A stretch of DNA of 64,000 nt from Moniliella sp. 'wahieum'. Its lineage: Eukaryota > Basidiomycota > Moniliellomycetes > Moniliellales > Moniliellaceae. The notes below the pieces were generated by a model. The model was not told where the DNA came from, ran no database searches, and was given only the letters and a program-made list of their open reading frames with translations. Below, piece by piece: positions 1,814 through 26,200 of this stretch. The DNA is taken from assembly GCA_003971905.1 (NCBI GenBank), contig RSEE01000002.1, positions 1 to 64,000 of the forward strand, read 5' to 3'. A program made the position numbers and the translations under genes. Position 1 is the stretch's first letter. Each line of letters begins with the position of its first letter.

Positions 1814-2142
1814 TCGACCTCATATCAGGTAGGACTACCCGCTGAACTTAAGCATATCAATAAGCGGGGAAGAGAAACAAACATGGATTCCCCTAGTAGC
1901 GGCGAGCGAAGCGGGATGAGCCCAGATTTGAAGCTCCCTTGCGGGCGCATTGTAAGCTGGAGACGTGCCTCGTGCGGTGCGGCTGGACGCCAAGTCTGCT
2001 GGAAAGCAGCATCAGAGAGGGTGAGAATCCCGTGCTTGGTCTGGCCTGGTGCCGTGTTGTGGGGTGCGCTCGACGAGTCGCGTTGTTTGGGAATGCAGCG
2101 CAAAGAGGGGTGGTAAAGGCCATCCAAGGCTAATATGGGGGA

Positions 2143-2176
<34 letters not shown>

Positions 2177-3940
2177 ATGAAAAGCACTTTGGAAAGAGAG
2201 TTAAAGAGTACGTGAAATTGCCAAAAGGGAAGCGTTGGAAGTCAGTGCCGGAGGCGCCTCGTCTGCCCCTCTCGGGGGTTGTACTGTGGCGGCCGTGGGG
2301 CCCATGTCGGTTGCGTGTGGGGGAGAAGGCGGCGCGGAAGGTAGCTTTCCTCTGGGGGGAGTGTTATAGCCGCGCTGTGGATGCCCCGCACACGACCGAG
2401 GACTGCCATTGGTGGACATGGGCTTAATGGCTTCAGCGGCCCGTCTTGAAACACGGACCAAGGAGTCTAACATGTATGCGAGTATGTGGGTGGCAAACCC
2501 GGCGTGCGAAATGAAAGTGATGTGGGTACGAACCCTCGGGTGCAGTACCGGCCGGCCCTGCGTGTGCGCACAAGGGGTCTGAGCAAGAGCATACCTGTTG
2601 GGACCCGAAAGATGGTGAACTTTGCCTGGCTAGGATGAAGCCAGGGGAAACCCTGGTGGAGGTCCGTCGCGGTTCTGACGTGCAAATCGATCGTTTGAGC
2701 TGGGCAAAGGGGCGAAAGACTAATCGAACCATCTAGTAGCTGGTTCCTGCCGAAGTTTCCCTCAGGATAGCAGAAGCTCGTGTGAGAACAATTTATGAGG
2801 TAAAGCGAATGATTAGAGGCCTTGGGGACGAAATGTTCTTAACCTATTCTCAAACTTTAAATGCGTAAGAAGCACTTGCTGCTTGGTTGAGCTTGTGCGT
2901 TGAATGTGAGTTTCTAGTGGGCCATTTTTGGTAAGCAGAACTGGCGATGCGGGATGAACCGATCGTGTGGTTAAGGAGCCAGTACACGCTCATGAGACAC
3001 CACAAAAGGTGTTGTACATCTAGACAGTTGGACGGTGGCCATGGAAGTCGGAATCCGCTAAGGAGTGTGTAACAACTCACCAACCGAATGTACTAGCCCT
3101 GAAAATGGATGGCGCTGAAGCGTGTCTCCCATACCACACCTTTCGTGCCAGAGTTGTGCGAAAGAGTAGGCAGGCGGGGGGTTTTGTGCCGAAGCGTTGG
3201 GCGTGAGCCTGCGTGGAACGGCCCCTGGTGCAGATCTTGGTGGCAGTAGCAAATATTCAACGAGTAACCTTGAAGACTGAAGGAGAAAGGTTCCATGGTA
3301 ACAGCAGTTGGACATGGGTGAGCCGATCCTAACCGATAGGCTGATGCTGATCCATAGCACCCTTTTGGGGGTGTGGTTCGGGAAAGGGAAGACGGTTAAG
3401 ATTCCGTCGCCGGGATGAGGATGTATTGAGCGGTAACGCAAGCAAGCCAGGAGACGCTGGCGAGTACCCCAGGAAGAGTTTTCTTTCTGCTTAACCATGC
3501 TGAGAATGCGCCGTGGAATCGGGTTATCCGGAGAGACGGTGCAGGCGTGGGAAGAGTGCTGGCGCTACGCTGGCATCTGGTGTGTGCTCGACGGCCCGGA
3601 AAATCCTGGTGCGTGTCTAGTCTCTCGCCCGGTCGTACTGATCACCGCAGCAGGTCTCCAAGGTGAAGAGCCTCTAGTTGAAACGAGAACGTAGGTAAGG
3701 GAAGTCGGCAAATTTGATCCGTAACTTTGGGAGAAGGATTGGCTCCAAGGCTTGGGTGCTGGCCGGGGCGTGCGGGTGGCGGCCTGGGCTGCCGGGGGCG
3801 CAAGCTCCTGGCGGCTGGGCGGCGCGCTGCGGCGCGGTCCGAAAGTGCGCTGAACAAGCGACTTGGAACTGGTACGGACGCGGGGAATCTGACTGTCTAA
3901 TTAAAACATAGCATTGCGATGGCCATAACGTGTGTTGACG

Positions 3941-3974
<34 letters not shown>

Positions 3975-3990
3975 AGTGAAGAGATTCAAC

Positions 3991-4028
<38 letters not shown>

Positions 4029-4549
4029 AAGGTAGCCAAATGCCTCGTCATTTAATTCGTGACGCGCATGAATGGATTAACGAGACTCCCACTGTCCCTA
4101 TCTACTACGTTGCGAAACCACAGCCTAGGGAACGGGCTAGGCATCTACGGCGGGGCAAGAAGACCCTGTTGAGCTTGACTCTAGTTTGACATTGTGAAGA
4201 GACATAGGGGGTGTAGGATAAGTGGGAGCGCAAGCGCCAGTGAAATACCACTACCCTTATCGTCTCTTTACTTATTCAGTGAGGTGGGCCTGCGAGGAGA
4301 CTCGCACCTTTTGGAATTACGTCGGTTGACAACCCTTCCTGAAGACATTGTCAGGTGGGGAGTTTGGCTGGGGCGGCACATCTGTTAAACAATAACGCAG
4401 GTGTCCCAAGGGCAGCTCATGGAGAACAGAAATCTCCAGTAGACCAAAAGGGGAAATGCTGCCTTGATTTTACTCTTCAGTGTGGATGCAAACCATGAAA
4501 GTGTGGCCTATCGATCCTTTTGTTCTCCGGCTTTTGGAGCAGGAGGTGC

Positions 4550-4584
<35 letters not shown>

Positions 4585-4607
4585 AGCCAAGCGTTCATAG
4601 CGACGTT

Positions 4608-4643
<36 letters not shown>

Positions 4644-4687
4644 GCCGTAGCAAAATTCGGCAAGCGTTGGATTGTTCACCCACCAAT

Positions 4688-4734
<47 letters not shown>

Positions 4735-4790
4735 TCCTACCGTAACACGCGAGTCGACAGTAGTTCCGGCGAGTACGAGAGGAACACCGG
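1814..4790 (+). rRNA. 28S rRNA: 28S large-subunit rRNA, 5' portion up to the element insertion
   Basis: It starts at the ITS2-proximal stem and ACCCGCTGAACTTAAGCATA and runs colinearly with eukaryotic LSU. The standard R2 target context CTCTAAGGTAGCCAAATGCC (about 4025-4044) is present and uninterrupted, and so is the R1 target region TGTCCCTATCTACTA (about 4093). The peptidyl-transferase region and the sarcin-ricin loop AGTACGAGAGGAAC (about 4772-4785) are intact. Continuity breaks at 4790, immediately after GAACACCGG, where a retroelement begins. The remainder of the gene resumes at 9061. A transcript of this unit would not give an intact 28S unless the insert were removed; I infer this unit is non-functional, as is usual for R-element-inserted units. 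Confidence 0.95.
4566..4790 (+). repeat. Left copy of the long 28S target-site duplication
   Basis: This 225-nt 28S segment, beginning GGGATAACTGGC and ending GAACACCGG, abuts the element 5' end. It is repeated directly after the element at 8837-9060. Two differences are visible: a run of five T here against four in the right copy, and ACACGC here against ACAAGC there. Weaker similarity extends upstream to about 4544 (AGGTGCCAGAAAA against AGGCGCCAGAAAA at 8815). Confidence 0.9.
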
Positions 4791-4857
4791 CGCCGCCTGT
4801 GAACCTGTGCTTGACGGAGCTACGGCGCGGGACTACGAGACGACGCTACGGACTACG

Positions 4858-7800
4858 ATGCGCGAAGAAGGAAACGTTTTGGTGCCTCGCGTGCCGCACT
4901 GCGGGCTGTGCTCCCGCTACGGCCATGTGGACGCTGGTTGCCAGTCGGTGGTGACGACGGGGAAGCTCTGTGGCGTGTGCCACACCCCGGGCCACCGGCG
5001 GGACCAGTGCCAGGAGCTGGTTGACCAGTCGATCAGGCGCATGGCCGAGCAAGCCGGAGCGGAGCCGCACGATGTGGCCTTGGATGCGGCGGCCATTGTG
5101 GCCCATGCGCCGAGCGACTGGGCATTGCCGCTGCGCGAGCGGCGTGCCCGTCGGCGCCCCCAGGACCGCCTCCTGGGCCAGGAACCAACAAGCGTGCCCG
5201 AAGCCCCAGCCCCCTGACCAGCTCGGACGGGGAGGCAGACGACGACTGGGTGGACCAAGCCGCAGCCGCGCCGCCGCGCCGCTCGGAGCGCAGAGCCGCC
5301 GCCAACGCGGCGTTTGCGCGCCAAGCGACGCTCCTGGCCGCCGCCGCTGTGCCCCTCCCCTCGTCGCCGCGGAGCTCGCCCTTGTCTTCGCCACGGCCGT
5401 CCGATGTGTCGACCAGCTCGGCCCCCCCTCGCCCGCTCGCCCCGCCGCGGCGCTCCCGCCGGGTGTGGTGTCTGGTGAAGATCTTCTGCGCCGCCCGCCC
5501 CAGGTCCGCCCTGGGGCGGATTCCGGCGTGGGTGATGTCACCGGTGCCGCGCCCGCTGCGGCGCCCACGGGTGATGATAGCTCGGACGATGAGATTGCCC
5601 CGCCTGCGACTTTTGTCCTCCCCACCCCCTCCCCCCTCACCCCCACCCAAGACGTGCTCGCCACCCCCCCCCACCTCCCCGCCCGTTCATTGACTTTGAC
5701 CCTCTCGACTTTGCCGCGGCGGCCGCGCGCCTGTTCGCCGAGTCGCCCTCGCCTGCGCCTGACGCTGCTGCCGAGGAGCGTGGGGCCACCGGCGCTGCCC
5801 CCGCGGGCAGCGCCGACCCCGCGTTTGACGCGCAGTTCCAGGAGCTGCTGCAGGAGCAGCACGTGCCCGCGCCCGCGGCGCGCCGCACCCGTGGCGCCCG
5901 TGGCGCCCGCCCGCACGTGCCGGCCGGCCGCGCCCCCCGCCGCGCGGCCCGTGCCCAGCTCTCGCCCTCGCCCGCGCCCCGCCCGTCGACCTGCCCGCCG
6001 ACCCGACGCTCGTGCCCGGTGGCGCGACCAGCGCCCGCACGCTCAAGAAGCGCTTTGCCTCGCTGGCAGAGTGTGCCGCGCCCTCCTGGCCCGGCAGCAC
6101 CATGGTGCGCCGCCGGTTCAAGGAGGCGGCCGGACGCATGGGCCGCGCGTACCTCGCGCGCCCCTCGGACCACGCCGTGTTCAACCTGCTGGCGCTGCCC
6201 AAGTGCGGCCTGCAGGGCGACTCGTCGTCGACCGTGTGTGCGTCGCTGCGTGCCTACCCCGAGGTGCCCTGGCCGCAGGCGGCCAAGCGTCCGACGCGCG
6301 AGATGCGCCGGCGCGATGTGCTGGACAAGGCCCACCGCCAAGTGACGCAGGGCATGCTCGGCCGCGCGGTCCGGACGCTGGAAGCGGACCAGGACACGGT
6401 GTCACTGACCGAGGCGACGTACCAGTCGCTGCAGGACAAGCACCCGACCGGCCCGCGCAACCCGATGGCCGGTGTTGTGGTCCGGCAGGTTGCCGAGCGC
6501 CCGCCGCCGACGCTGACCGGCGACGCGATCGAGGACGACGAGGGCCACCTGCTGGAAGATCTCGAGGTTCAAGACAAGGATGTGGACCGTGCTGCTGCTA
6601 GCTTCTCCCGCGACGTGGGAGGCGGCGTCAGTGGCTGGTCCCAGCCGCTGCTGCGGCTCGCGCTCCAGCACGACGACTTCAAGGCGGCGGTCAAGTCGAT
6701 GGCCACCGCCATGTACGCGGGCACCTGCCCCGGCGCCCAGCTGCTCTGCACCAGCAGGCTCACGGCTCTTGCCAAGCCGGACGGAGGTGTGCGCCCCATT
6801 GCCTGTGGGGAGCTCCTCTACCGGCTCCTGGCCAAGATCCTCCTGCTGCACATCGACGTCCGCTCGCCCCTCTTGCGCACCCAGCTGGGTGTCAAGTCCA
6901 AGGGCGGCGTGGAGCCGATTGTGCGGCTGCTGGACCGCGTCGTCACCGGAGGCGACCAAGGCAACGGCCCCGCGTGGGAGGACCGGTTCAAGTATGTGAC
7001 GTCGCTCGACTTTAAGAACGCGTTCAACAGCGTGGACCGACATGTGATGGCGCAGGCCGTCAACGACCACTGCCGCGAGCTGGTGCCCTTCTACCGCTGG
7101 GCATACGGACAGCACACGCAGCTGGTCGCGGGCGGTGCGGGGAACGTGCGCACGATTGTCAGCCAGCAAGGCGTCCGGCAAGGCGATCCCTTTGGCCCCT
7201 TTTCTTTTCCGTCGCGATCCGGGACACGCTCGCCGCGGCGCAGCGCGCGCTCGGCGACGCAGGTGTGGTCGTGTCCTACCTGGACGACACCTACCTGCTG
7301 TCGCGCGAGCCCAACGCACTGTCGCTCGTGTCGGGCGCCCTGAAGCACGGAAAGACGGGGCTGGAGCTCAACGTGGCCAAGACCAGCGTCACCAGCGTGC
7401 AAGAGATGCAGGCCCAGGGTGCCAAGGTCCTCGGCTCGTGCATTGGGCCCCGGGACGCCCGCCTGGCCTTTCTGCGGGACAAGATTGCGGACCAAGCCTC
7501 CCGCTACCCCGCCCTGCATGGCCTTGCACTGCAGGACCGGCTGCTGCTCTTGCGGTCGTGCCTGCAGCACAACCTCCGCCACCTGCTGCGCTGCATGCGG
7601 ACTGACGATCTCGCGGAGGAGCTGCGCGAGATTGATGGGCAGCTGTGGCAAGAGGTCAAGGCCATCCGGGGCGCCGACCCGAACGACGTGGAGGGACAAC
7701 GGTGGGACGAAGCTCTCTTTCCCTGCCCGCCCGCAGTGGCGGGCTTGGCTTCTTCTCCCACCTCGACGTTGCTCCCCACGCGCGGGCGGCCTCATGCGAG

Positions 7801-8764
7801 GAGGCGGATGTGTGGGTGGAAAAGGTGATTGCTGGCTGCCGACCGGAGAGAGAGAGAGAGAGACGCGCCAGCCGCCACGCGACAGTCGCAGCGGGAACGG
7901 ACGACCGCCATGTTTGCCGACCAACAGGCGAAGCTACTGACCGAGCTGCCGCCCGAGTTGGGCCACCGGCTGCTAGAGAACGCCGAAGCGCTCAACCGGA
8001 CGTGGATGTCGGTGGTGCCCTCGACTCCAGCTTTAACGCTTCCTGACCACGAGGTCATGGCTGGACTGCACCTCCGCACCCTCTGCCGGCACGCCGCCGT
8101 CTGCCGGAACTGCAACGGACCCTGCCCAGATGTGGGGCACCTGCAGTCCTGCAACCGGTGGCGCTCGATTGGCAACTACCGCCATGAGATGCTCCGACGC
8201 TGCATCGTCAACCTGGCCCGGCACATTCCGGCCACCGAGGTGGAGACCGAGCCCTTCACCCAGCCGCAGCGCCCCGGGCGCTACGACCGCACCGCCAACC
8301 GCACCGACATCAAGCTGACAGGAACCGGTGCCTCCAAGGGCACCTCGACATGCTACGACCTGACGTTTTGGTCTTTCGGGAACAAGACGCGCGACGCCGA
8401 CATGCGCCGCGTCCGCCAGCAACTCGCCGCCACCACGCCGGCGCCCGAGCTGCGCAGGAAGGAGATGGATGTGTTTGTCGAGACCGCCGCCAAGGACAAG
8501 CACCGCAAGTACGACGCGATTACTACAGGTGCTTTTGTGCCCTTGGTCTTTACCGCAGGCGGCTACGCCCACGGCGAGGCCAAGGCTGCTTTGGCGCACT
8601 GGAAGGGGGAGGCGAACGCCGGTGCCTACCGCACGTTCACCGCCCTCTTTTCGTCCTGGCTCTTGCGTTGTGCGGTACAAGGCATGCGAGTCGCCCCTTC
8701 CCACCGCGCCACCCCCACGGATGGCGGGGAGGGGGCGATACTCGTAGAGCCCCGCGCGGCGTAA
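4858..8764 (+). CDS. Retroelement polyprotein: CCHC-CCHC-RT-CCHC-RLE, read in several frames
   Basis: The first in-frame ATG is at 4858. Two gag-type knuckles follow, CGLCSRYGHVDAGC and CGVCHTPGHRRDQC (each CX2CX4HX4C). The frame changes near 5190-5220 into an Ala/Pro-rich basic linker, and the RT lies in frame from about 6012. Motif A (SLDFKNAFNS) is near 6995-7030 and motif B (QGVRQGDPFG) near 7165-7200. A T-rich run near 7200 shifts frame before motif C, YLDD at 7277-7288. A second slip near 7715-7722 gives the LPARSGGLGFF segment. A (GA)n tract at 7845-7863 moves the frame back. The C-terminal part has CRNCNGPCPDVGHLQSC (near 8102-8152) and the endonuclease motif RTDIKLTG ... CYDLTFWSF (8300-8375). 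All catalytic residues I can identify are present. The breaks sit in simple repeats, so they may be sequencing error rather than inactivation. Spans should be read as one gene. Confidence 0.8.
7845..7863 (+). repeat. (GA)n microsatellite inside the retroelement ORF
   Basis: About nine GA units lie between the thumb segment in one frame and the C-terminal endonuclease domain in another. A length change of one base restores the frame, so this is a slippage site, either in vivo or during sequencing. Confidence 0.8.
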
Positions 8765-8836
8765 GCCAGATGGCGTACACCCCATCCTCGGTACTACTCC
8801 TGTCAGAGCGTTTTAGGCGCCAGAAAATGCACCCCC

Positions 8837-8878
8837 GGGATAACTGGCTTGTGGCAGCCAAGCGTTCATAGCGACGTT

Positions 8879-8913
<35 letters not shown>

Positions 8914-8957
8914 GCCGTAGCAAAATTCGGCAAGCGTTGGATTGTTCACCCACCAAT

Positions 8958-9004
<47 letters not shown>

Positions 9005-9060
9005 TCCTACCGTAACAAGCGAGTCGACAGTAGTTCCGGCGAGTACGAGAGGAACACCGG
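8837..9060 (+). repeat. Right copy of the long 28S target-site duplication
   Basis: This 224-nt stretch repeats 28S 4566-4790, including a second sarcin-ricin loop (about 9042-9055). It continues directly into unique 28S 3' sequence at 9061. It therefore belongs to this rDNA unit and shows that the insertion duplicated its target. Confidence 0.9.
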
Positions 9061-9380
9061 GGCCGGGCCTCCAGTTGAGCACCTGTCCGACCGGGCAGAG
9101 GTGCGCAGCCGCGCCCGCCGAGTAACACCTGAACGCCTCTAAGGTGGAACTCGTGCTAGTACGCTCGCATGTGCGCTGGACTGGGTACCAATAGGCGCAA
9201 GCCGTACACCACGGGGGGGTCTCTGTGGCGGGGCGACGCCCCACCACACGCCCCACAATATACACTTGAAGCACACTGCAAATCCCCCGCATACGACGGG
9301 GCATGGTCCGAGCGCCGTACGCCGTAGAGTGGGCTTGTTCCCACGATCGGCTGAAGCCCATCTCGGCACCTCTGATTCCC
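9061..9380 (+). rRNA. 28S rRNA: 28S large-subunit rRNA, 3' portion
   Basis: Continuation of 28S after the insertion. CTGAACGCCTCTAAG is near 9129. Near the end are the yeast-like blocks ACGACGGGGCATGG (about 9294) and GTAGAGTGGGCTTGTT (about 9324), followed by CACGATCGGCTGA and CTCTGATT. The mature 3' end is placed at about 9377-9380 by comparison with the yeast 25S end. After it the sequence becomes C-rich spacer. Confidence 0.88.
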
Positions 9381-10566
9381 CCCCTCCCTCGGGAGGGGGT
9401 TCCCTGACCAAGTCCCAACCCTACCCCCGAAAAAATATGGAAAAATAGCGCGCCTGCGGCGCAAGAAAGAACGAAAAGAGGGAAAGAAAAGAGGGAAGAC
9501 TGCGTGAGCGGCGCCGGACGCTCTATCAGGTTTGAGCCATACCCTTTGCCCCGTTTTTCCCCCCGTTTTACCCCGCTGCGAGCACCCCGAAACCCTACTG
9601 ACCACCGGTTAGCGGTTCTTTTTGCCCCCCCCTCTTTGGTACGTGCCCCCCTCCCGCTCTCCTTTTGCACACCCACCCTCCACGGGCAGGGCTCCCCCCG
9701 TACTAATACACCCCGCCCCCAGCGTCCACCGTTGCGGCGCTACACCCCATTCTACCCCCCATCTTCGACCCCCGCCCATGCCCTACAACTCTTCCCCCCG
9801 CGCCCCCACGCCGCCCACACCTCCCTCTCACCCCCCTCTCCACTTCGTTCTAATACCACTTGGCCGTACCTCCAACCGTTCAGCAGCTACAGCACTTCCC
9901 CCGCATACCTCACCCTATAGAGCACGTATATATTCGCTGTCCTGCCCACCGCCCCCCCTCCGTAACCTATAGAGCCCGTATATATACAGTTTTGCGTCCG
10001 TGTGCAGCATCGTGCTTCCCTCGGCACTGTTCACCTTATAGCGTGTACACCCTCGAAGCGCGGCTTGGAATTATAATTAACCCTAGTTCATTCTGTTGCT
10101 GCGGAGTCGCAACCCTAGTGCCCCGTTTGCCAATGAACTGTGCTGGTTTTCGGGCCTGCCCCCCATCCTCTCACCACCACCCCCACCCCCACCACACGTA
10201 TGCCAAAGCATCGCCCTGACCACCGTCTTCAGCATGCGTGTTAACTCTGTCGGATGAGCTCCGCGACGTGACCAATGCCGGGCCATGCACGGCATCGGGC
10301 GCGCAGAGCCACGTTCGATCCGTCCCATCCGGTGATCATTTCCCTGGGCCACTCGCCCCCTCCCACAACACAGTCTTCCCCTTCCAATTGCCATTTTGTG
10401 CCGGTGAAGCGCGTAAGCTGAGGAGCGCAACGACATACGGACCGCCAGCTTACTCATCAGCTGAACGCATACCCTGCTTGGAGTAACTAGTAAGTCACCA
10501 CTATTGCTTCGCTTGCTCATCGCTAACTGTCCAATGTGAAGATATGATATGCCTTGCGGGATGCAC
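9381..10566 (+). other. rDNA intergenic spacer, no gene seen
   Basis: This is a low-complexity, strongly pyrimidine-rich spacer with an A-rich patch (GAAAAAATATGGAAAAATAG, about 9429) just after 28S that could serve in termination. Two near-identical boxes, CCTATAGAGCACGTATATAT (9914) and CCTATAGAGCCCGTATATAT (9966), lie 52 nt apart. A weaker third, ACCTTATAGCGTGTACACC, is near 10031. They could be spacer promoter elements. No 5S rRNA gene was recognised. Open frames here are Pro/Ser-rich artefacts of C-rich sequence. Confidence 0.6.
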
Positions 10567-10637
10567 TTGTCCCTATCTACTACGTTGCGAAACCACAGCC
10601 TAGGGATTGGGCTAGGCTACTACGGCGGGGCACGAAG
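10567..10637 (+). repeat. Ectopic 71-bp 28S fragment fused to a retroelement copy
   Basis: The sequence matches 28S 4092-4162 (TGTCCCTATCTACTACGTTG onward, ending GGCGGGGCACGAAG against GGCGGGGCAAGAAG) with a few substitutions. Upstream sequence is spacer, not 28S. Downstream it runs straight into the 5' coding region of a relative of the 28S element. Confidence 0.85.
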
Positions 10638-18360: not shown

Positions 18361-19115
18361 AACAACGAAGTCGCATTCATCCCCACCCACAACTTGTTGA
18401 AAATGGGTTGAACACCTGGTCTGGTCCCAGCAGCAACCCCAAGCTCTTCCCGACGCACTCCCAGCGCAGACCGCAATGACTGCCACGACGCACAACGCTT
18501 CCACACAGCGAACGCATTCCTCACCTCAAGCTTGCTGCCGCCGACCGTCAGCACCTTTCATACTAAAGATGAAAACGATCATCCGCGCGGCCCTACTCAA
18601 TACCGGCGCCATGATTCGCTCTACTGGTTTTACATGTACGACGACGACCTCCACCCACATTTCCTCTGGGATGATGTACTGACCGACGCGCTTGTGCGGG
18701 CCGGAACGTACAGGCGCGGGTATGCAGAAGGGGATGGATAATCAAGAGTGTCCGAGCACTAAGGCAAGGACATGGGTCAAACCAGTTCCCGCTTTTCATT
18801 TATGTGGGAGATGTTAATGGCTCCTGTGGAAGCTGCCAAGTCATATGCTTCCAGGCCCCGTCTCGTCTGGGGGCCAATATCCGACTGCTGCATATTAGAG
18901 CCCTCTCCCCCCTCTTCTCCCAGAAGGGCATCAAGTCTAAGGCAGAGTGGGCCAGATTGTGCGTCTGCTGGACATTTGTTACAGAAGGCGATCGAGGCGA
19001 AGGGCCCGAGCGAACAAGAAGAGGTTCCAATGTGTATCGTGGATCGACTTCAAACACAGCTTACAAGATGTGCAAGCGCAACGCCATGATCGCGGTCTTC
19101 TGCATTGGGGCTAAT
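18360..19115 (+). repeat. Repeat block D, copy 1, ending in an internally deleted RT remnant
   Basis: It matches 21900-22690. Landmarks are CTCACCTCAAGCTTGCTGCC (18519), CTTTCATACTAAAGAT, and an intron-like unit starting GTACGACGACGACCTC (18635) whose 3' site has decayed to GTGCG. An exon-like AGTGTCCGAGCACTA follows. From about 18900 there is an RT remnant (IKSKAEWAR, then TCGACTTCAAACACAGCTTA). It jumps from motif A (SLDFKNAFNS in the intact element) directly to the region equivalent to VQEMQAQGAKVLGSCIG, so motifs B and C are missing. Confidence 0.55.
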
Positions 19116-21150
19116 GTGGGTCGGGTGCAGGGTGGGAGGGGGCAGCTGGCGGTGACAAGAGACGCGATCCGCGCGGTGCGTTGGCCGCTGCGTCGGCGCT
19201 CGTCGCTCGCAATGCGTTTGTCTGGGCGACGGAAAAAAAGCGGCTGACTCCCCTGACGCGGTCAAGTTGAACTTATTCCCTCTCCACCTTTCCATCACCA
19301 CCTTCTCCGCCTTGACCGCGGCCTGGAGGCCCTGGCGAATCATGTGGCCCCTGCCGTAGGCGCGTGAACGAGGCCAGCGTGAACTAGCGAAAAACCAACA
19401 GCTCAGGTGCGCATGCGCTAAGCCAGGCAGTCGGTGTAGGCTGTGCTCAGCCCAATGTGGCAGCCGAAGCGGACCACCCGGCAGTTCCGATTCGGATCCA
19501 TTCGAGTGGTGGAGTGCGCTGTGCCCTCGCCGCCGGGCAGCACAATGGTGCGGTGTCGGTTCAAAGAGGCGGCCGGTCGATTGGGAAGAGCGTATTTAAT
19601 TTAGATCATCCCGACGATTATGCCGTGTTCAACCTGGTTGCCCTGTCGAAGGCGGGCTTGCGGAGGGGGCTCTTCGGCCGACGTTTATGCCATCCTCAAG
19701 ACCTGTCCGGAGATGGCTTGGCCGCCCGCTATGGAGAAGGGCTCTGCAGAGCGGTGGCGTTCCGATGATTTGACCCGTGCACACCGCCAGGTTAAAGAGG
19801 GCATGCTGGGGCGTGCGGCGCGTACGCTGCGTCCCGAGGATGCGGCGGTGGGGTTTGGGCCGGAAACGGTCGAGGCCCTGCGTGCGAAGCTGCAGACCCG
19901 AAGAACCCGCTTACTGGTTTGGTCGTTCGGCAAATGTCGGAGCGGGCCCCGCCTGGTTTAACAGGCGGCACCGCAGTGGTAGACGTCGGTGAGCCCCCAA
20001 TAGTTTTGGAGTTGGATGATAAGGACATCTATCGCGCGGCAAGCAGCTTCTCCCGGGACGCGGGGGGAGGCGTGGGCGGATGGTCGGTTCCTCTTCTCCA
20101 GCTGGCTCTGAAGCACGATGACTTTAAAGCGGCTCTCAAAGCCATGGCGTGCGTCATGTTTCATGGGACGTGTCTGGGTGCTCAATTGTTGTGCACCGGC
20201 AGGTTGCTTGCGAAGCCTGACGGTGGAGTGAGACCGATCGCCTGTGGTGAGCTACTTTACCGCGTAATGGCCAAGGCACTTCTTCATTTGGATGTGGTTA
20301 CTCCTCTGCTCCACACGCAGTTGGGCGTCAAGTCCAAGGGCGGGGTGGACAATTGTGCCGCTTATGGATCGTTTGGTTAGTGGGGCAGAGAGGGACCCGG
20401 CTTGGGCCAAGTTCAACTATGTGCTGTCGTTGGACTTTAAGAATGCGTTCAACTCGACCGACCGGGCAGCGGTGGCCCAGGAGGTGAGTGACTATTCGCC
20501 CGAGCTCCTTCCTTTCTTTCGTTGGGCTTATGGGAAGCACACCCAGTTGGTGTTGGGTGGTGCAGGCGGCTTTGGAACCCCCCTTAGCCACAGCAGGGGG
20601 GTGAAGCAGGGCGACCTCTTTGGGCCCTTCTTCTCTGTCGGCATCCGCAGCATGCTCGAGCAGGCACAGCGCGCGTTGGGCGACGATGGGTTGGTGGTGT
20701 CCTATTTGTACGCCACTTATGTATTGTCGCGCGTGCAATGCCAATGCGTTGCAGCTGGTCTCGCGTGTCGTGCGCAGAGCAAGACGGGGCTGGACCTCAA
20801 CCTGCGCAAGACGAAGACTGTCTCGACGCAGAAGTTGCGTCTGGAGGGCGGCACCTTCCTCGGCTCGTTCGTGGGTCCCAGGGCAGCTCGGCTCGCTTTT
20901 CTGCAGGCAAAGGTGAAGGCTCAGGCGGCGCTTTGCCCTTCCTTGCACGGGAAGCCGCTGCAGGACCGCTTGTTCTTGTTGCGCGTGGCTCTGCAGCAGA
21001 ACCTGCGGTACCTGCTCCGCTCGATGCGGACAGACGACCTGGCGGACCAGCTCCACCAGATCGACGAGCAGCGCTGGTGCGAGGTTAAGGCAATCGGGGG
21101 GGGGCGAATCCGAGCGAGGAGGACGGTCAGAAGTGGCAGAGTTCTTTTCT
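19115..21150 (+). pseudogene. Retroelement copy with RT domain, catalytic motif lost
   Basis: This is the best preserved diverged copy. It begins with a segment also found at 24430 (GTGGGTCGGGTGCAGGG...). It carries the pre-RT region (AHRQVKEGMLGRAARTL against AHRQVTQGMLGRAVRTL in the 28S copy), KPDGGVRPIACGELLYR near 20215, SLDFKNAFNSTDR near 20430, and GVKQGDLFGPFFS near 20600. Motif C reads YLYA at 20703-20714 instead of YLDD, removing both catalytic aspartates. Frame breaks occur near 19560-19620, 19915 and 20350. The thumb continues to RTDDLADQLHQID. No knuckles or endonuclease follow; block B begins instead. The wrong motif C makes this copy inactive whatever the sequence quality. Confidence 0.8.
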
Positions 21151-21900
21151 CTTGCCAGTCCGTATGGGTTCGGGCGCCAACAGTGGTGGCATTCCGGTTG
21201 GTTCTGTCCATAGCTACTGGTAAGGCGGGTTTGGATATGGCGCCTTCCATTGAAGTGGGACTGCTCGTACCCCTGATAAGACTGGGCTCATATCGCTCCT
21301 GTCCCCCAGGGTGGCGCGGTGGCCAAGATGGAATCGACGTTGTGATCAAGGCACACCTTAAGCGATCTGGCATATCGTCGGTCCGCTTCTGTTACATCCG
21401 GCAACCTCTCTCGTCCCCACCGCCTTGCCGCCCTACCACCACGCCGGATTGCCAGGCGTGCCAATCCATTTTCACACTATCATGCTCGATGTACCGACTA
21501 TCTGTTCATCAGGTACGAAGCCACCCAAGCCTTGCTGTGTTGTAATGTACTGACCAGTGCGTTAAACAGGTACGAATACACTAGGTGGCTAACCGATGGA
21601 AAAGCAAGTCATCGCCCCGCTCTCTCCAGAAGTATCGCCTCCGCATCAGATTAAAACACCCGCCAGGCAACGACAACCCCGGATGGTGGTGGGGCCGGTT
21701 TGCGAGGGCCCGCCCAACGTTGACCGGAGAGCGCTGCAGATGAAAACAACGGACAAGCGCTGCAAGAACCTGAGGTGCAAGATAAAGGAATGGATCGAGT
21801 CATTACCAGCTTCGGCCGCGATCGATGTAGTGCATGAAGCAGAGGCTCCGCATCTGCAGGTCGTCTCGCCCAAGCCCAGGAATGTTGGTCAGAGATACAA
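21150..21900 (+). repeat. Repeat block B, copy 2 of 3
   Basis: It joins the end of the RT remnant and matches 14380-15120. Landmarks are GGTAAGGCGGGTTTGGATAT, GGGCTCATATCGCTCCTGTC, a 57-nt intron-like unit at 21513-21569 ending GACCAGTGCGTTAAACAG, and CGCCAGGCAACGACAACC near 21662. The following open piece (GCAAGATAAAGGAATGG...) aligns with 25.9-26.2 kb. Confidence 0.65.
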
Positions 21901-22440
21901 CATGGAAACCGCATTGATCCCCACCCATGGGGTCGAAGTCTGGCCTGGTTCCAGCACCAGGCCCAAGCCCTTCTCAGACGCACTCCCCTCGTAGACCGCA
22001 AAGGCCTCTACGATGGTCAATGCCTTCCACATGGCGAATGCATTTCTCACCTCAAGCTTGCTGCCGCCGACCGTCAGCGCCTTTCATACTAAAGCCAAAA
22101 ATGATCATCCGCACGGCCCTATTCAATACTGGCGTCATGATTATTTCTACTGTTTTATATGTACGGCGACGACCTCCACCCACACTTCCTCTGGTATGAT
22201 ATACTGACCGACGCGGTGTGCAGGCCGGAACGTACAGGCACGGGTATGCAGACGGAGATGGATGGTCAAGAGTGTCCGAGCACTACGGCAAGGACATGGG
22301 TCAAACCAGTGCCCTCTTTCATTACGTGGGAAATGTTAGTGGTCCGGCATCGCTTTACACTTGGCCATCCCTCAACATGATGACGCTGTGGAAGCTGCCC
22401 AGTCATATGCTTCCAAGGTCCGTCTCGTCTTGGAGCCAAT
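21900..22440 (+). repeat. Repeat block D, copy 2
   Basis: It matches 18360-18900. The longest readable frame runs from MVNAFHMANAFLTSSLLPP near 22013 to GPIQYWRHDYFYCF. There it meets a 62-nt intron-like unit at 22162-22223 (GTACGGCGACG ... ATACTGACCGACGCGGTGTGCAG). Splicing would continue into AGTYRHGYADGDGWSRVSEH. The product is not recognised. Confidence 0.55.
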
Positions 22441-24230
22441 ATCTCCACTGCATATCAGAGTAACCCCCCCTCTTCTCCCAGATGGGAATCAAGTCCAAGG
22501 GAGAGTGGGGCAGATGGTGCGTTGGCTGGGCACTTCGTTACAGAAGGCGATCGAGGCGAAGGGCCCGAGAGTAAACAAAAAAAAACGGTTCCAATGTGTA
22601 ACGTGCCTCGACTTAAAACACAGCGTGCAAGATGTGCAAGCGCAACGTGCCAAGATCGTGGGCTTCTGCATTGGGGATAGTATCACCTGACTGATGATCT
22701 TGCGAGTCAAGAATGTGGATCAACCAAACTCGCTACCCCTGCTTAAAACCCCTCCCGTGCGTTGCCCCACCGGGTTCAGTTTTTCATTTTCGGTTCGTGC
22801 TTGCAGCAACTCCTCCGCCATCTGTTTCGCTCGAGCGGAGAAAGGATCTGGCACGGGCCAAACTCCCCTGGGTAGGTGAGCAGCAATGACACGAGGCAAG
22901 CCATCCGGGACGACAATCGGGGCAATGTGGACGGTCAATGGTAGGGCCAAGTTGGCATCCCGATGCCCGTTGGTTTAGGCAGATCGGTCTTGCTCTCTCG
23001 TCTTGGCTTTGCTCCACAGGCCAAGGCATCGGCTTGCGTAGAGAGGGGAATGTATTGGCGGACGAGGTCAACGGCCGTCATGAAGGGGGATCCGGGCCGC
23101 TCATCGACATGGCGCATGGAAAAAACGACGGTTTTGCTCGCCCGCCAGGATACGAAGCTGCTGCCTCCCGTGACTACACTGCTTCGCTCCTGGCTCATCG
23201 AAAAGCAGAAGTGCTCGACCAGAGCTGGAGGACAAGGTGCCCTCTAATCCAGGGTTTACTTTTCTTGGCCACGGGGTCATGGCTGGGTTGCGGGACATTG
23301 CTGGGTTGCGGGACATTGCGGCCACTATGGTAGAGCCCGACCCATCCAACAATCCGGAGCGAATTGGACGCCCCACACCACTGTCGCCCGCGCTCAGATC
23401 ACGATGGCGAAAGCAGGTGCTCCAAAGAACCCATCCATATTGAACGGCCTAACTCTTTGGTCATTCGGGGACAAGATGCGCGACGCCTATCCTAGGCCGT
23501 GTCTGCCATCCACTCGTTGCCGCCCCTCCGGCACACGCGTTGTGCAAGAAGGAGATGATCACCTTGTTCGACACGGAGGCCAAAGCAAAGCACCAACGTA
23601 CAATCCTTGTCCAACGGGTTCCTAGCTCTGTTCCCTTGGTCTTCCCTGCAGGTGTGACTACGCCTGTGGTTAGTCCAGGGCTGCTTTTGGCACACTGCCA
23701 GGGAGAGCAAGCGTTGGTTGTCATTCCTTATTCGCCTTGCCGCTCGGACTCTTGCCTGTGCGAGCAATGGTATACCTGCCGACCATGTTGCAAAACCGCG
23801 GCCTGGGAGCCAGGCTAGGCATTGCGGTGCTTTGGCCCAAGAATACAAGACGAGCAAGATGCGTATCCGCAGAACGTTCTGGACTGCGTGCTCTACTTTG
23901 GCCACCAATGTGTCCAAGGCATCTTGGTGTACGGCTCCTCGGCTAGTATTGCAGTGCGTCCAGTCAAATTGTGTGGTGGCCTCTTTTTGCTCTGACATTT
24001 GGCGTAAGGAGGTGGCTCGAGCCATCAACCTCGCCATCAGGACGCCTGTGAGAACGTGTCAGTACCCGAAAATGATGAGGTCCGTTCCAGACCCCCGTTC
24101 CCGTCACGCTGCCGATTGCCAAAGCTGGGCCGGAAGTAGCCAGCCAGCGTGGTGGACCGGGTGCGTCCCAAGACCTGGTGGGTGGATGAAGCCTTGTGTC
24201 TGTCGTCCGTGCTTGCGGGGTATGTTTGTG
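22440..24230 (+). pseudogene. Internally deleted retroelement copy: RT stump plus endonuclease remnant
   Basis: From 22480 a KSKG-type motif and CVTCLDLKHS (motif A) pass straight into VQDVQAQRAKIVGFCIG, so the catalytic half of RT is deleted, as at 18.9 kb. A diverged thumb follows (CAGCAACTCCTCCGCCATCT near 22803). From about 23440 there is an RLE remnant: LTLWSFGDKMRDAY against LTFWSFGNKTRDAD, then KKEMITLFDTEAKAKHQ against RKEMDVFVETAAKDKHR of the 28S copy, and SVPLVFPAG against FVPLVFTAG. A tandem pair CTGGGTTGCGGGACATTG lies at about 23284-23320. Dead by deletion. Confidence 0.7.
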
Positions 24231-24429
24231 TGATGGTCGGCTCTGACTCGCGACGTGAGGACCGCACTCACGGGTTCCCCGCGGTTTTCTTCGTACGTTC
24301 ATCCCCCCAAACAGCCGGTTGGCATGGAATGCATGAGAACCACACCCTACCCGACTGTTGTTCGTCTCGTCTACGCCCAAGAGCGAGGGGAACGAGGCGA
24401 TGGTGCGTAGTGGGATGTTGATCCCGTCT

Positions 24430-25400
24430 CTGGGCGGGATGTGGGTCGGGTGCAGGGCGGGAGGGGGCAGCTGGTGATGGCAGGAGACGCGATCCGAGCG
24501 GTGCTTACCGAACCGGTTCGTCTGGGCGATACAGGCGGCGGGGGTCACCGGTCGCCGGTCACGGTCACTGGTCACCGGAGCAGGATTGAATATGGGTTGC
24601 ACGATTGAAACTTGAAACGATCCTGTGGCGAGTGAACCAACAAGCCGCTGGCGCCTCCTGACACGGCCAATTGAACTGAGTCCTTCTCCATCTTTCCACC
24701 ACCTCCTTCTCATCCGCCTTGCCCACCGCCTGGAGATCGTGGCGAATCATGTGGCCTGCCGTGGTGCGCGTGCCCGCGGCACGGTGGGAACTTGCGTAAC
24801 ATCGCCAGCTGCTATGCCAGGCAGTTGTGGCCTCAGCCCAAACTTGCGAACGAAGCGGACAACCTGGCAGTTCCGATTCAGGCCCATTCGAGTGGTGGAG
24901 CGCGCAGCAGCCTCGCGCCCTGGCAGCACGATGGTGCCACGTCTATTCAAGCGGGCCGCGGGTCTCTTGGGAATTACCTATCTAGATCATCTCGACGATC
25001 GCGATGCGTTTAACCTGCTTCTTCCGAAGGGGGCTGGCAGGGAGGCTCCTCGTCGACGTTTGCGCTCCCTCAGGGGCGATCCCGAGGAAGCCTGGCCACC
25101 AGCATCGATGATTTGGTGCGTGCGCACCGCCAGGTCAAGGAAGGCGTCCTAGGGCGGTCGGCGCGCACGCTGCGTCCCCAGGACGCGGTGGTGGTGGGGT
25201 TTGGGCCACAGGCGGCTCTGCGCCCGCGTTGCACGGGTTGCCGCTGCAGGACCGCCTGCTTTGTTACGGGGGCTCTGCAACAACTATTCAGAATCTGCCC
25301 CGTACAATGAGGGCGGAGGATCTGGCGGACCAGCTCCAGCAGATGGACGAGTAGCTCTGGCGTGATCTGAAGGCAATCCGGGAGGGGCGGATCCGAGAGT
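24430..25400 (+). pseudogene. Retroelement copy with most of the RT deleted
   Basis: It opens with the segment shared with 19115 (ATGTGGGTCGGGTGCAGGGC) and continues through the pre-RT region (HRQVKEGVLGRSARTL near 25120). It then jumps at about 25210-25225 to the thumb (LHGLPLQDRLL equivalent). Everything between, including all RT catalytic motifs, is missing. Block B follows, as after the 19-21 kb copy. A GGTCACCGGTCGCCGGTCAC tandem near 24545 is specific to this copy. Confidence 0.65.
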
Positions 25401-25439
25401 GATGCGGCGTCAGAGGTGGGGACAAAGCTCTCTTCTCCT

Positions 25440-26200
25440 TGCCACCGTAAGGGTGCCTTAGGCTTTTGGGTGCTAACAGTGGTTGTATTCCGGTTGCTTC
25501 TATTCAAGGCACTGGTAAGACGGGGGAGATGGTGCCTTCCATTGCAGTGGTCCTGCTGGGATCCCTGATGCGACTGGACTCATATCACACCTGTCCTCCG
25601 CGGTGGTGCTGCGGCCAAGATGGGGTTGGCGCTTCCATCAAGGCACTCTGTGAGGCGGTGAGGCATCTCGTCAGTCCGCTTTTGGTTCCTGTTCTCATGC
25701 GACAAGCCGATGGCACCACCTCCTTCGTTTCGGCCATACGGCAACCCCAAAGGGAGAGACGTGCCAATGCAGTTTCCCTCTTTTCTTCTAATCCATTGAT
25801 GTTCATCATATGCGGAACCACCCAACCCTTGCTCTCCAGTGACGTACTGACCAGTGCGCTAAACAGATACCAATACGCTAGGCGCAGGAGAATAGCCGAT
25901 GGATTAAGCAAAGTGATCGCTTCCCTATACTCAGTGGCATTTCCTCGCCACGATCAAACACCCCTCCAAGCAATGACAAGCTCGAATGGTGGCGGGGCAG
26001 GTTGGGCAAGAGCCGCTGTCTACGATGACCGGGGGCGTGGGTGGTGAGAGCAACGGACACGGCGTTGAAACATATCGAGGACCATTACGAAGATGTAGAT
26101 CAAATCTTGGCCGGCTTCTGCCGCGACCTGGTGCCGATGAAGAAGGAATCGCGCACCTGCAGATCGCCCCGCTCAAGCCCGAGGAATGTGGGTCAGACAT
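25440..26200 (+). repeat. Repeat block B, copy 3 of 3
   Basis: It follows the RT-deleted copy at the same relative position as copy 2. The landmark series is the same: GGTAAGACGGGGGAGATGG, GGACTCATATCACACC and TACTGACCAGTGCGCTAAAC near 25847. The 5' splice site has decayed to ATGCG. The end reads DHYEDVDQILAGFCRDLVPM in one frame. Confidence 0.6.

What the first reader, a model, noticed from the sequence alone, without database searches (positions are those of the whole stretch)
4566..9060. Exceptionally long (about 225 bp) target-site duplication around a 28S retroelement
28S 4566-4790 is repeated at 8837-9060 with only two visible differences (T5 against T4, C against A), and the retroelement lies exactly between. 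R2-type insertions usually give very short or no duplications; the rotifer R9 element is the known exception at 126 bp. A duplication this long implies second-strand cleavage far from the first nick, so a distinct integration geometry in a fungus.
Basis: partly seen in the sequence, partly recalled or inferred. Interest (0 to 1): 0.85.

Follow-up and report, generated by a model that had tools for sequence, protein, structure and literature searches.

The report
Fungal 28S retroelement with 225-bp duplication
A jumping element in a probable fungus has inserted into ribosomal RNA genes and is flanked by an unusually long, real repeat of the gene, and other copies in the same genome show where the first cut is made and that the repeat length depends on the site.

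Summary
In detail: window 4566-4790 recurs at 8837-9060 (223 identities), exactly flanking a 4,046-bp element with an R2-like RT. The same right boundary occurs at 8 of 8 element-28S junctions found and the same left boundary at 4 of 4 (C2 and C33 share one sequence, so 7 and 3 distinct). Contig C158 holds a head-to-tail array with the same 28S spacers.

Five element 3' ends found outside rDNA lack the 28S segment (0 of 5), so copy 2 is target DNA. Three of the five can be resolved: they share a 28S-like nick motif, (C)CACA^GGG or close to it, with duplications of 12, about 5 and 53-66 bp. So the first cut is sequence-specific, while the length belongs to the 28S site, not to a fixed 225-bp stagger.

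Two mechanisms remain: a distant second cut at 28S 4790, or a left copy inherited from upstream 28S in the template RNA. One polymorphism (4748) leans to the second, but other copies do not fit and rDNA exchange can mimic it. Host: fungus supported by one marker. Clade unresolved.

The parts
1815..4790 (+). 28S rRNA gene, 5' part, up to the element
   Evidence: Rfam RF02543 (1815-4877); in the 28S genes C14, C53, C219 and C201 this part runs on into 9061 onwards
4566..4790 (+). left copy of the duplicated 28S segment (GGGATAACTGG ... GAACACCGG)
4791..8836 (+). R2-like non-LTR retroelement 'A', 4,046 bp, in the sense of the 28S
   Evidence: boundaries from empty sites, array spacers and non-28S copies
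4900..5010 (+). two CCHC zinc-knuckle motifs near the N-terminus (CxxCx4Hx4C, twice)
   Evidence: read by eye from the translation; no Pfam match for 4855-5214
6012..7199 (+). reverse transcriptase, first part of the domain, open frame
   Evidence: Pfam RVT_1 E 7.6e-5, below the curated cut-off; a profile with relatives matches only R2 proteins in the PDB at E up to 0.1 (3 of 3)
7193..7790 (+). rest of the RT, in another frame, with the YLDD motif at 7277-7288
   Evidence: RVT_1 E 0.023 for 7202-7780; the frame shift may be a sequencing error
7829..8761 (+). C-terminal region with CCHC motif (from 8102), RHE, and RxD...D: putative restriction-like endonuclease
   Evidence: motifs read by eye; parts shared with relatives in alignment A1; no Pfam match; the structure model was too poor to confirm the fold
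8815..8836 (+). element 3' tip that mimics the 28S left of the nick
   Evidence: 16 of 22 identical to 4544-4565; present with small differences in the 5 non-28S copies found
8837..9060 (+). right copy of the duplicated 28S segment
9061..9198 (+). 28S rRNA gene, 3' end
   Evidence: Rfam RF02540 8784-9198; alignment with empty units
10568..10637 (+). 70-bp 28S fragment (= 4093-4162, 93%) followed by sequence about 70% like the element's 5' end: relic of a second, older family 'B'
18872..25443 (+). degenerate relatives of the element downstream of the rDNA

Best explanation
Element A is an R2-like non-LTR retrotransposon with a putative restriction-like endonuclease. It inserts by target-primed reverse transcription. 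Shown by sequence: at the junctions found, the element's 3' end joins the 28S at one point, ACCACA^GGGATAACTGG, and similar sequence lies at the resolved sites outside 28S, so it is taken as the bottom-strand first nick. Shown: the 28S to the right of the element is target DNA. Inferred: in 28S the top strand is then cut at, or second-strand synthesis starts at, a fixed place 225 bp downstream (after GAACACCGG at 4790), and filling in the long stagger leaves two copies. Because the whole site survives at the left, a second element can insert again, which builds head-to-tail arrays. At other sites, without the 28S sequence at 4790, the second cut falls nearer, and duplications are about 5 to 66 bp.
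For: Exact repeat with 223 identities. Right boundary at 4566 in 8 of 8 element-28S junctions found and left boundary at 4790 in 4 of 4 (C2 and C33 share an identical sequence, so 7 and 3 distinct). Array of elements with 28S spacers of 226, 221 and 224 bp in C158. 28S genes without the duplication in C14, C53, C219 and C201. Non-28S copies found lack the 28S segment, 0 of 5. Non-28S targets CCCACCACA^GGGATGA, GGTGCCACA^GGGGGTT and TGTACAACA^GGGACAA match 6, 7 and 6 of the 9 bases left of the 28S nick; product of background probabilities 5e-8 (register set by hand from the duplication, weakest at C127). A 53-66 bp duplication at C63 shows that long staggers can occur in unrelated DNA. RT relatives match only R2 proteins in the PDB (3 of 3 and 5 of 5 at E up to 0.1).
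Against: None of the three resolved non-28S duplications is near 225 bp, so a built-in 225-bp spacing is unlikely. Left and right copies in the window differ at 4748 (C/A), where a fresh stagger would give identical copies; A is the state of 4 of 4 empty and 2 of 2 truncated 28S genes and of the right copies of C2/C33 and C69; C is that of both C158 spacers and of the right copies of C158, C30 and C24. At C30:609535 no such nick motif could be placed. The endonuclease fold was not confirmed. No raw reads were available.
Confidence: 0.5

Rival explanations
1. The left copy is inherited through RNA. The element is co-transcribed with 28S, the template RNA keeps at least 225 nt of upstream 28S (including 4566-4790), and the cDNA end pairs with, or recombines into, the target upstream of a single break at 4565/4566. 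The duplication arose once and is propagated with each insertion; no 225-bp stagger is needed.
For: The duplication has the same boundaries in 28S, 4 of 4 left and 8 of 8 right, but is about 5 to 66 bp at the three resolved sites without 28S homology. The window's left copy has C at 4748, as both array spacers do, and its right copy the base of the empty genes, A. Precedent: R2 RNAs can keep up to 36 nt of upstream 28S, and junction variants, including 28S sequence from downstream of the site in earwig R2, are proposed to be propagated in the RNA (PMC3774820, abstract and passages).
Against: It needs far more upstream 28S on the RNA than the 36 nt reported for R2. Right copies at C30, C24 and C158 also have C, as expected if a target with C was simply duplicated. 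The evidence is one site, and rDNA exchange or conversion in the right copy gives the same pattern. The 5'-end search gave no copy outside rDNA with 28S at its 5' end.
Confidence: 0.33
2. Misassembly of two rDNA units, or an rDNA recombination product that only looks like a target duplication.
For: rDNA is noisy here; C33 is identical to C2 in all that was compared, 3066-9384, and C24 and C30 begin at the same element position, 7691.
Against: The same two boundaries recur in C158 as array spacers, the right boundary in C30, C24 and C69, and non-28S insertions show a similar nick motif with their own duplications.
Confidence: 0.05
3. The right-hand 28S copy is part of the element RNA (3' read-through carried along), not target DNA.
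For: In the rDNA alone, an element with a 28S tail would look the same; tandem arrays would fit too.
Against: 0 of 5 copies found outside 28S carry the tail; after the ACCCCC tip they run into local sequence, with only the first few bases (GGGATA at most) shared with 28S.
Confidence: 0.03
4. On the array only (odds separate from the rivals above): C158 arose by unequal crossing-over between 225-bp copies, not by repeated insertion.
For: 225-bp direct repeats are good substrates (general knowledge); the C158 units differ from the window copy by only 3, 9 and 10 substitutions.
Against: Repeated insertion into the left copy is the mechanism proposed for Drosophila R1 arrays with 14-bp spacers (PMC2718515, passages). 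The two cannot be separated with this noisy assembly.
Confidence: 0.4

Closest known systems
R9 of bdelloid rotifers (Gladyshev and Arkhipova 2009; original not read, known here through PMC6895275 and PMC12203849 passages)
   Same: rDNA-inserted R2-like element with a very long target duplication
   Different: 126 bp against 225 bp; animal host; its 28S position could not be checked in the papers held
R2 clade (R2Bm, R2Tg)
   Same: RT profile of element A plus relatives matches only R2 proteins in the PDB at E up to 0.1; 28S target; CCHC and RxD...D motifs at the C-terminus (comparison with R2 recalled)
   Different: site about 530 bp downstream of the R2 site (R2 site recalled: AAGGTAG^CCAAATG, window 4035/4036); N-terminal CCHC knuckles, against zinc finger and Myb motifs in R2 (PMC12203849, passages); R2Bm gives a 2-bp deletion (PMC6895275, passages)
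Drosophila R1 (PMC2718515, passages)
   Same: fixed first nick, duplication, tandem arrays separated by the duplicated 28S, non-28S insertions with 2-14 bp duplications
   Different: R1 spacers are 14 bp; R1 has an AP-type endonuclease (recalled); different 28S site
Fish R2 with a 28S-like 3' UTR (PMC5035012 section 14)
   Same: 28S-like sequence at the element's 3' end
   Different: there 110-130 bp of 28S is replaced; here 225 bp is duplicated
CRE-type fungal elements (MoTeR, FoTeR; PMC12857005, passages; clade name recalled)
   Same: fungal host; endonuclease pattern C-x2-C-x8-H-x3-C-x9-RHE is close to the MoTeR pattern C-x2-C-x6-H-x3-C-x9-RHD
   Different: 28S target, not telomeres

Membership tests
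Non-LTR retrotransposon (target-primed) | reverse transcriptase with YxDD, no long terminal repeats of its own, fixed 3' end, 5'-truncated copies | tested here: met
   RVT_1 below cut-off and YLDD; no repeat of 40 bp or more at the element's own ends; fixed 3' tip with 5'-truncated copies at C63, C1, C30 and C127
R2 clade | RT of R2 type | tested here: inconclusive
   only R2 proteins among PDB matches (3 of 3 at E up to 0.1), but no reference set of other RLE clades was available for a tree
R2 clade | restriction-like endonuclease at the C-terminus | tested here: inconclusive
   motifs present by eye; no Pfam or meaningful PDB match; model pLDDT 38.5
R2 element | insertion at the canonical R2 site of 28S | tested here: not met
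   first nick at 4565/4566, about 530 bp downstream (R2 site recalled)
R2 clade | N-terminal zinc finger and Myb DNA-binding domain | tested here: inconclusive
   the open N-terminal piece shows two CCHC knuckles and no Pfam domain; frames are interrupted, so part of the N-terminus was not seen in one frame
R9 | 126-bp duplication at its 28S site | tested here: not met
   225 bp; the R9 site itself could not be checked
CRE clade | insertion in spliced-leader genes or telomere repeats | tested here: not met
   8 of 8 rDNA junctions found lie at 28S 4566; no telomere repeat follows the 5 non-28S ends
Host is a fungus | fungal alpha-aminoadipate reductase (Lys2, TIGR03443; fungal character recalled) | tested here: met
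   match over the curated cut-off at C138 (1163.9 against 1030.1 bits, with its neighbours in the frame) and a second large match at C130; over the cut-off in 0 of 14 control genomes, those named being prokaryotes. One marker; no 18S tree was possible

The most novel reading that the evidence does not exclude
The 225-bp duplication is not made anew by a long stagger but travels as a passenger: the template RNA carries the upstream 28S segment, and each insertion rebuilds the left copy from it after a single cut inside the peptidyl-transferase core sequence. If so, other exceptionally long duplications (R9) may also be inherited junctions and not cleavage geometries, and the element's 28S-like 3' tip together with the left copy would keep a nearly intact target at inserted genes.
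Probability: 0.3. Interest if true: 0.78.

Novelty: new variant of a known kind. Interest (0 to 1): 0.62.

Why it matters
It is the longest target duplication I know of for an rDNA-specific non-LTR element (126 bp is quoted as the distant case in PMC6895275, passages), and the host is probably fungal, whereas the passages on R2 seen here speak of animals (PMC4640811, PMC12203849). The genome holds 28S insertions, empty sites, an array, possible scars and short non-28S insertions side by side, so the first-nick preference can be read directly. The poorly understood second half of the reaction becomes testable: fixed second cut or RNA-templated left copy.

Tried and rejected
Rejected: copy 2 as a 3' transduction (0 of 5 non-28S copies found carry it); a longer duplication that has mutated at its left end (the tip occurs, with small differences, in the 5 non-28S copies, so it is element sequence); simple misassembly (boundaries recur).

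Led nowhere: structure of the endonuclease region (pLDDT 38.5; no fold search made); PDB searches with that region (none; only weak unrelated matches, E 0.55 and above); HDV-like ribozyme at the 5' end (Rfam over 4700-5100 at E up to 10 listed only rRNA; RNA fold no better than shuffles); position of the R9 site (paper PMC3312299 not held; one search listed 2 papers, and the passages seen gave no coordinates); duplication at C30:609535 (repetitive flank, no clear nick motif) and at C222 (5' end outside the contig).

Literature searches that bear on novelty. By title and start of abstract, none of the listed papers is about a fungal 28S element with a long duplication; others (20 of 259; 10 of 23,363) were cut lists, and the library holds only open-licence papers. 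So this is no proof of absence in print.

Results against my reading: right copies with C at C30, C24 and C158 do not fit the simplest RNA-templated model; the short non-28S duplications do not fit the simplest fixed-stagger model. C10_part was covered, but its base at 4748 (called C, with a difference at 4746) is unclear, and it is left out of the 4-of-4 and 2-of-2 counts. In one search the third block (non-28S sites) was sliced out of register; it is replaced. Genome searches score only the best candidates, so all copy counts are lower bounds. Only parts of contigs were read.
Full report
OBSERVATION. The window starts inside an 18S gene and carries 5.8S (1535-1689) and 28S (from 1815). The 28S is interrupted after 4790 by a 4,046-bp element and then repeats 225 bp of itself: 4566-4790 and 8837-9060 align with 223 identical columns, the only differences being one T in a T run and C/A at 4748. 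The 28S continues to about 9198. The boundaries are exact: the empty gene C14 reads ACCACA-GGGATAACTGG and empty genes read GAACACCGG-GGCCGGGCC (C14 with one extra C), while the element reads ...ACCCCC-GGGATAACTGG and GAACACCGG-CGCCGCC.

COPIES IN THE GENOME. The window lies at the start of contig C2 of a 69.5-Mb genome. The 225-bp segment has 17 places: 10 adjoin the element (C2 twice, C33 twice, C158 three times, C30, C24, C69), 4 are empty 28S genes (C14, C53, C219, C201), 2 are truncated at 4570-4572 (C129, C112) and 1 is cut by a contig end (C10). C33 is identical to C2 in the stretch compared, 3066-9384, and differs after it, so it is not counted as independent support. The right boundary at 4566 is the same in 8 of 8 element-28S junctions found, the left boundary at 4790 in 4 of 4. 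C158 holds a partial element, then spacer, element, spacer, element, spacer and the 28S 3' end, the spacers being 226, 221 and 224 bp. Copies in rDNA differ from the window copy by 0-10 substitutions and 7-51 indels, a pattern I take for long-read noise; reading frames therefore cannot be judged, and T5/T4 is not evidence.

WHAT THE ELEMENT IS. It encodes two N-terminal CCHC knuckles (read by eye), an RT (RVT_1 E 7.6e-5, below the cut-off; YLDD in another frame) and a C-terminal region with CCHC, RHE and RxD...D motifs, partly shared with relatives elsewhere in the genome. An RT profile with relatives matches only R2 proteins in the PDB, 3 of 3 at E up to 0.1; the RT of a related family with a long open frame gives 5 of 5 R2 proteins at E up to 0.1, while the window's RT alone gave none at 0.01. 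The endonuclease fold could not be confirmed. Differences between the window copy and the relatives at C12, C14 and C69 fall at third codon positions in 15 of 24, 11 of 17 and 13 of 20 cases in the first RT block, but only 10 of 24, 17 of 31 and 14 of 29 in the second: weak to moderate evidence of past selection on the protein.

WHERE IT CUTS. The element's 3' tip also occurs at five places outside 28S: C222, C63, C1, C30:609535 and C127. None of the five is followed by the 28S segment. At the three where both flanks can be read, the duplicated target begins at CACA^GGG or a near variant: CCCACCACA^GGGATGA (C63), GGTGCCACA^GGGGGTT (C127), TGTACAACA^GGGACAA (C1), against GTTACCACA^GGGATAA in 28S; matches left of the nick are 6, 7 and 6 of 9, product of background probabilities 5e-8. 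The register was set by hand from the duplications and is weakest at C127, where only about 5 bp are repeated. At C30:609535 the right flank starts GAGAC and no nick motif could be placed; at C222 the left flank is missing. These sites put the first-strand nick at 4565/4566 and show that the right-hand 28S copy is target DNA. The duplications are 53 (left) to 66 (right) bp at C63, about 5 bp at C127 and 12 bp at C1. By recalled E. coli numbering, GGGATAAC lies at 23S G2445-C2452, so the nick is a few bases from A2451 of the peptidyl-transferase centre, and 4790 lies just after the sarcin-ricin loop; the sequence is therefore very conserved.

MECHANISM. The first half of the reaction fits standard target-primed reverse transcription at a fixed nick. 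The second half differs with the site: 225 bp in 28S, about 5 to 66 bp elsewhere. Two readings remain. In the first, the top strand is cut at a fixed place in 28S and the long stagger is filled in. In the second, the left copy is copied from 28S sequence in the co-transcript and joined by homology. The second predicts that left copies carry donor bases and right copies target bases. R2 gives a precedent for the second: up to 36 nt of upstream 28S stay on the RNA, and junction variants are thought to be propagated (PMC3774820, abstract and passages).

CONSEQUENCES. Because 4566-4790 and everything to its left survive, the left side of an insertion is again a complete target. Drosophila R1 arrays, whose members are separated by the 14-bp duplication, are explained in the same way (PMC2718515, passages); unequal crossing-over remains possible for C158. 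In C53 and C219 an otherwise empty 28S has the element's tip in place of the native 9 bases before the nick, as expected from an aborted insertion or from a deletion between AGGTGCCAGAAAA in 28S and AGGCGCCAGAAAA in the tip.

SECOND FAMILY. In the rDNA units read, 1.3-1.7 kb downstream of the 28S 3' end, lies a 70-bp piece of 28S (4093-4162); the surrounding 431 bp have 19 long matches in the genome, many near contig ends. In the window, C14 and C69 it is followed by sequence about 70% like the element's 5' end. In C3 two shorter, weaker 28S matches (35 and 48 bp, 83-86%) lie about 6.06 kb apart with related element sequence between. I read these as arrays of an older family with spacers of about 70 bp from another 28S site; I did not look for a copy inside a 28S gene beyond the loci held.

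COMPARISON AND NOVELTY. 126 bp (R9) is quoted as the distant case (PMC6895275, passages). The R2 site is not used, the visible N-terminus is not of R2 type, and CRE targets are not met, so I call it an R2-like element of undecided clade and do not file it under R2, R9 or CRE. Fungal identity rests on one marker family.

Counts were restated as 'found', the second RT block and the C30:609535 site were added, the N-terminal test was lowered to inconclusive, and the size of the long open frames and the place of the 70-bp piece were corrected. The odds did not need to change.

Noticed in passing
C129 (L057:600-615) and C112 (L058:645-665): 28S genes truncated at 4570-4572, 4-6 bp from the element's first nick, and joined to telomere-associated sequence (C112: CCCTAACTGGG). 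Possibly breaks at the element's target that were capped or captured by telomere sequence.
   Followed up: partly
C53 (L048) and C219 (L055:1304-1327): Otherwise empty 28S genes carry the element's last bases in place of the native 9 bp before the nick: a scar of deletion or of aborted insertion.
   Followed up: partly
window 10568-10637; C3 11733 and 17796 (L040): Older related family with spacers of up to about 70 bp from 28S 4093-4162, arranged in tandem near a chromosome end.
   Followed up: partly
C24:748319 (L044, L063): 28S gene broken at 4103, inside TGTCCCTATCT (the R1 neighbourhood, recalled), followed by other sequence; possibly another insertion.
   Followed up: no
ends of contigs C2, C3, C10, C12, C14, C19, C24, C30, C33, C53, C69, C129, C158: rDNA or its downstream spacer lies near these contig ends, with the 28S, where present, pointing inward; C3 starts with a telomere (CCCTAA)n. 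rDNA seems to be subtelomeric on many chromosomes.
   Followed up: partly
L021, L022, L023, L024 (C73, C2:979494, C5, C33:436783): A dispersed related RT family (49% identical in the RT) with open frames of 914, 961, 712 and 267 aa, and the same C-terminal motifs in part.
   Followed up: no
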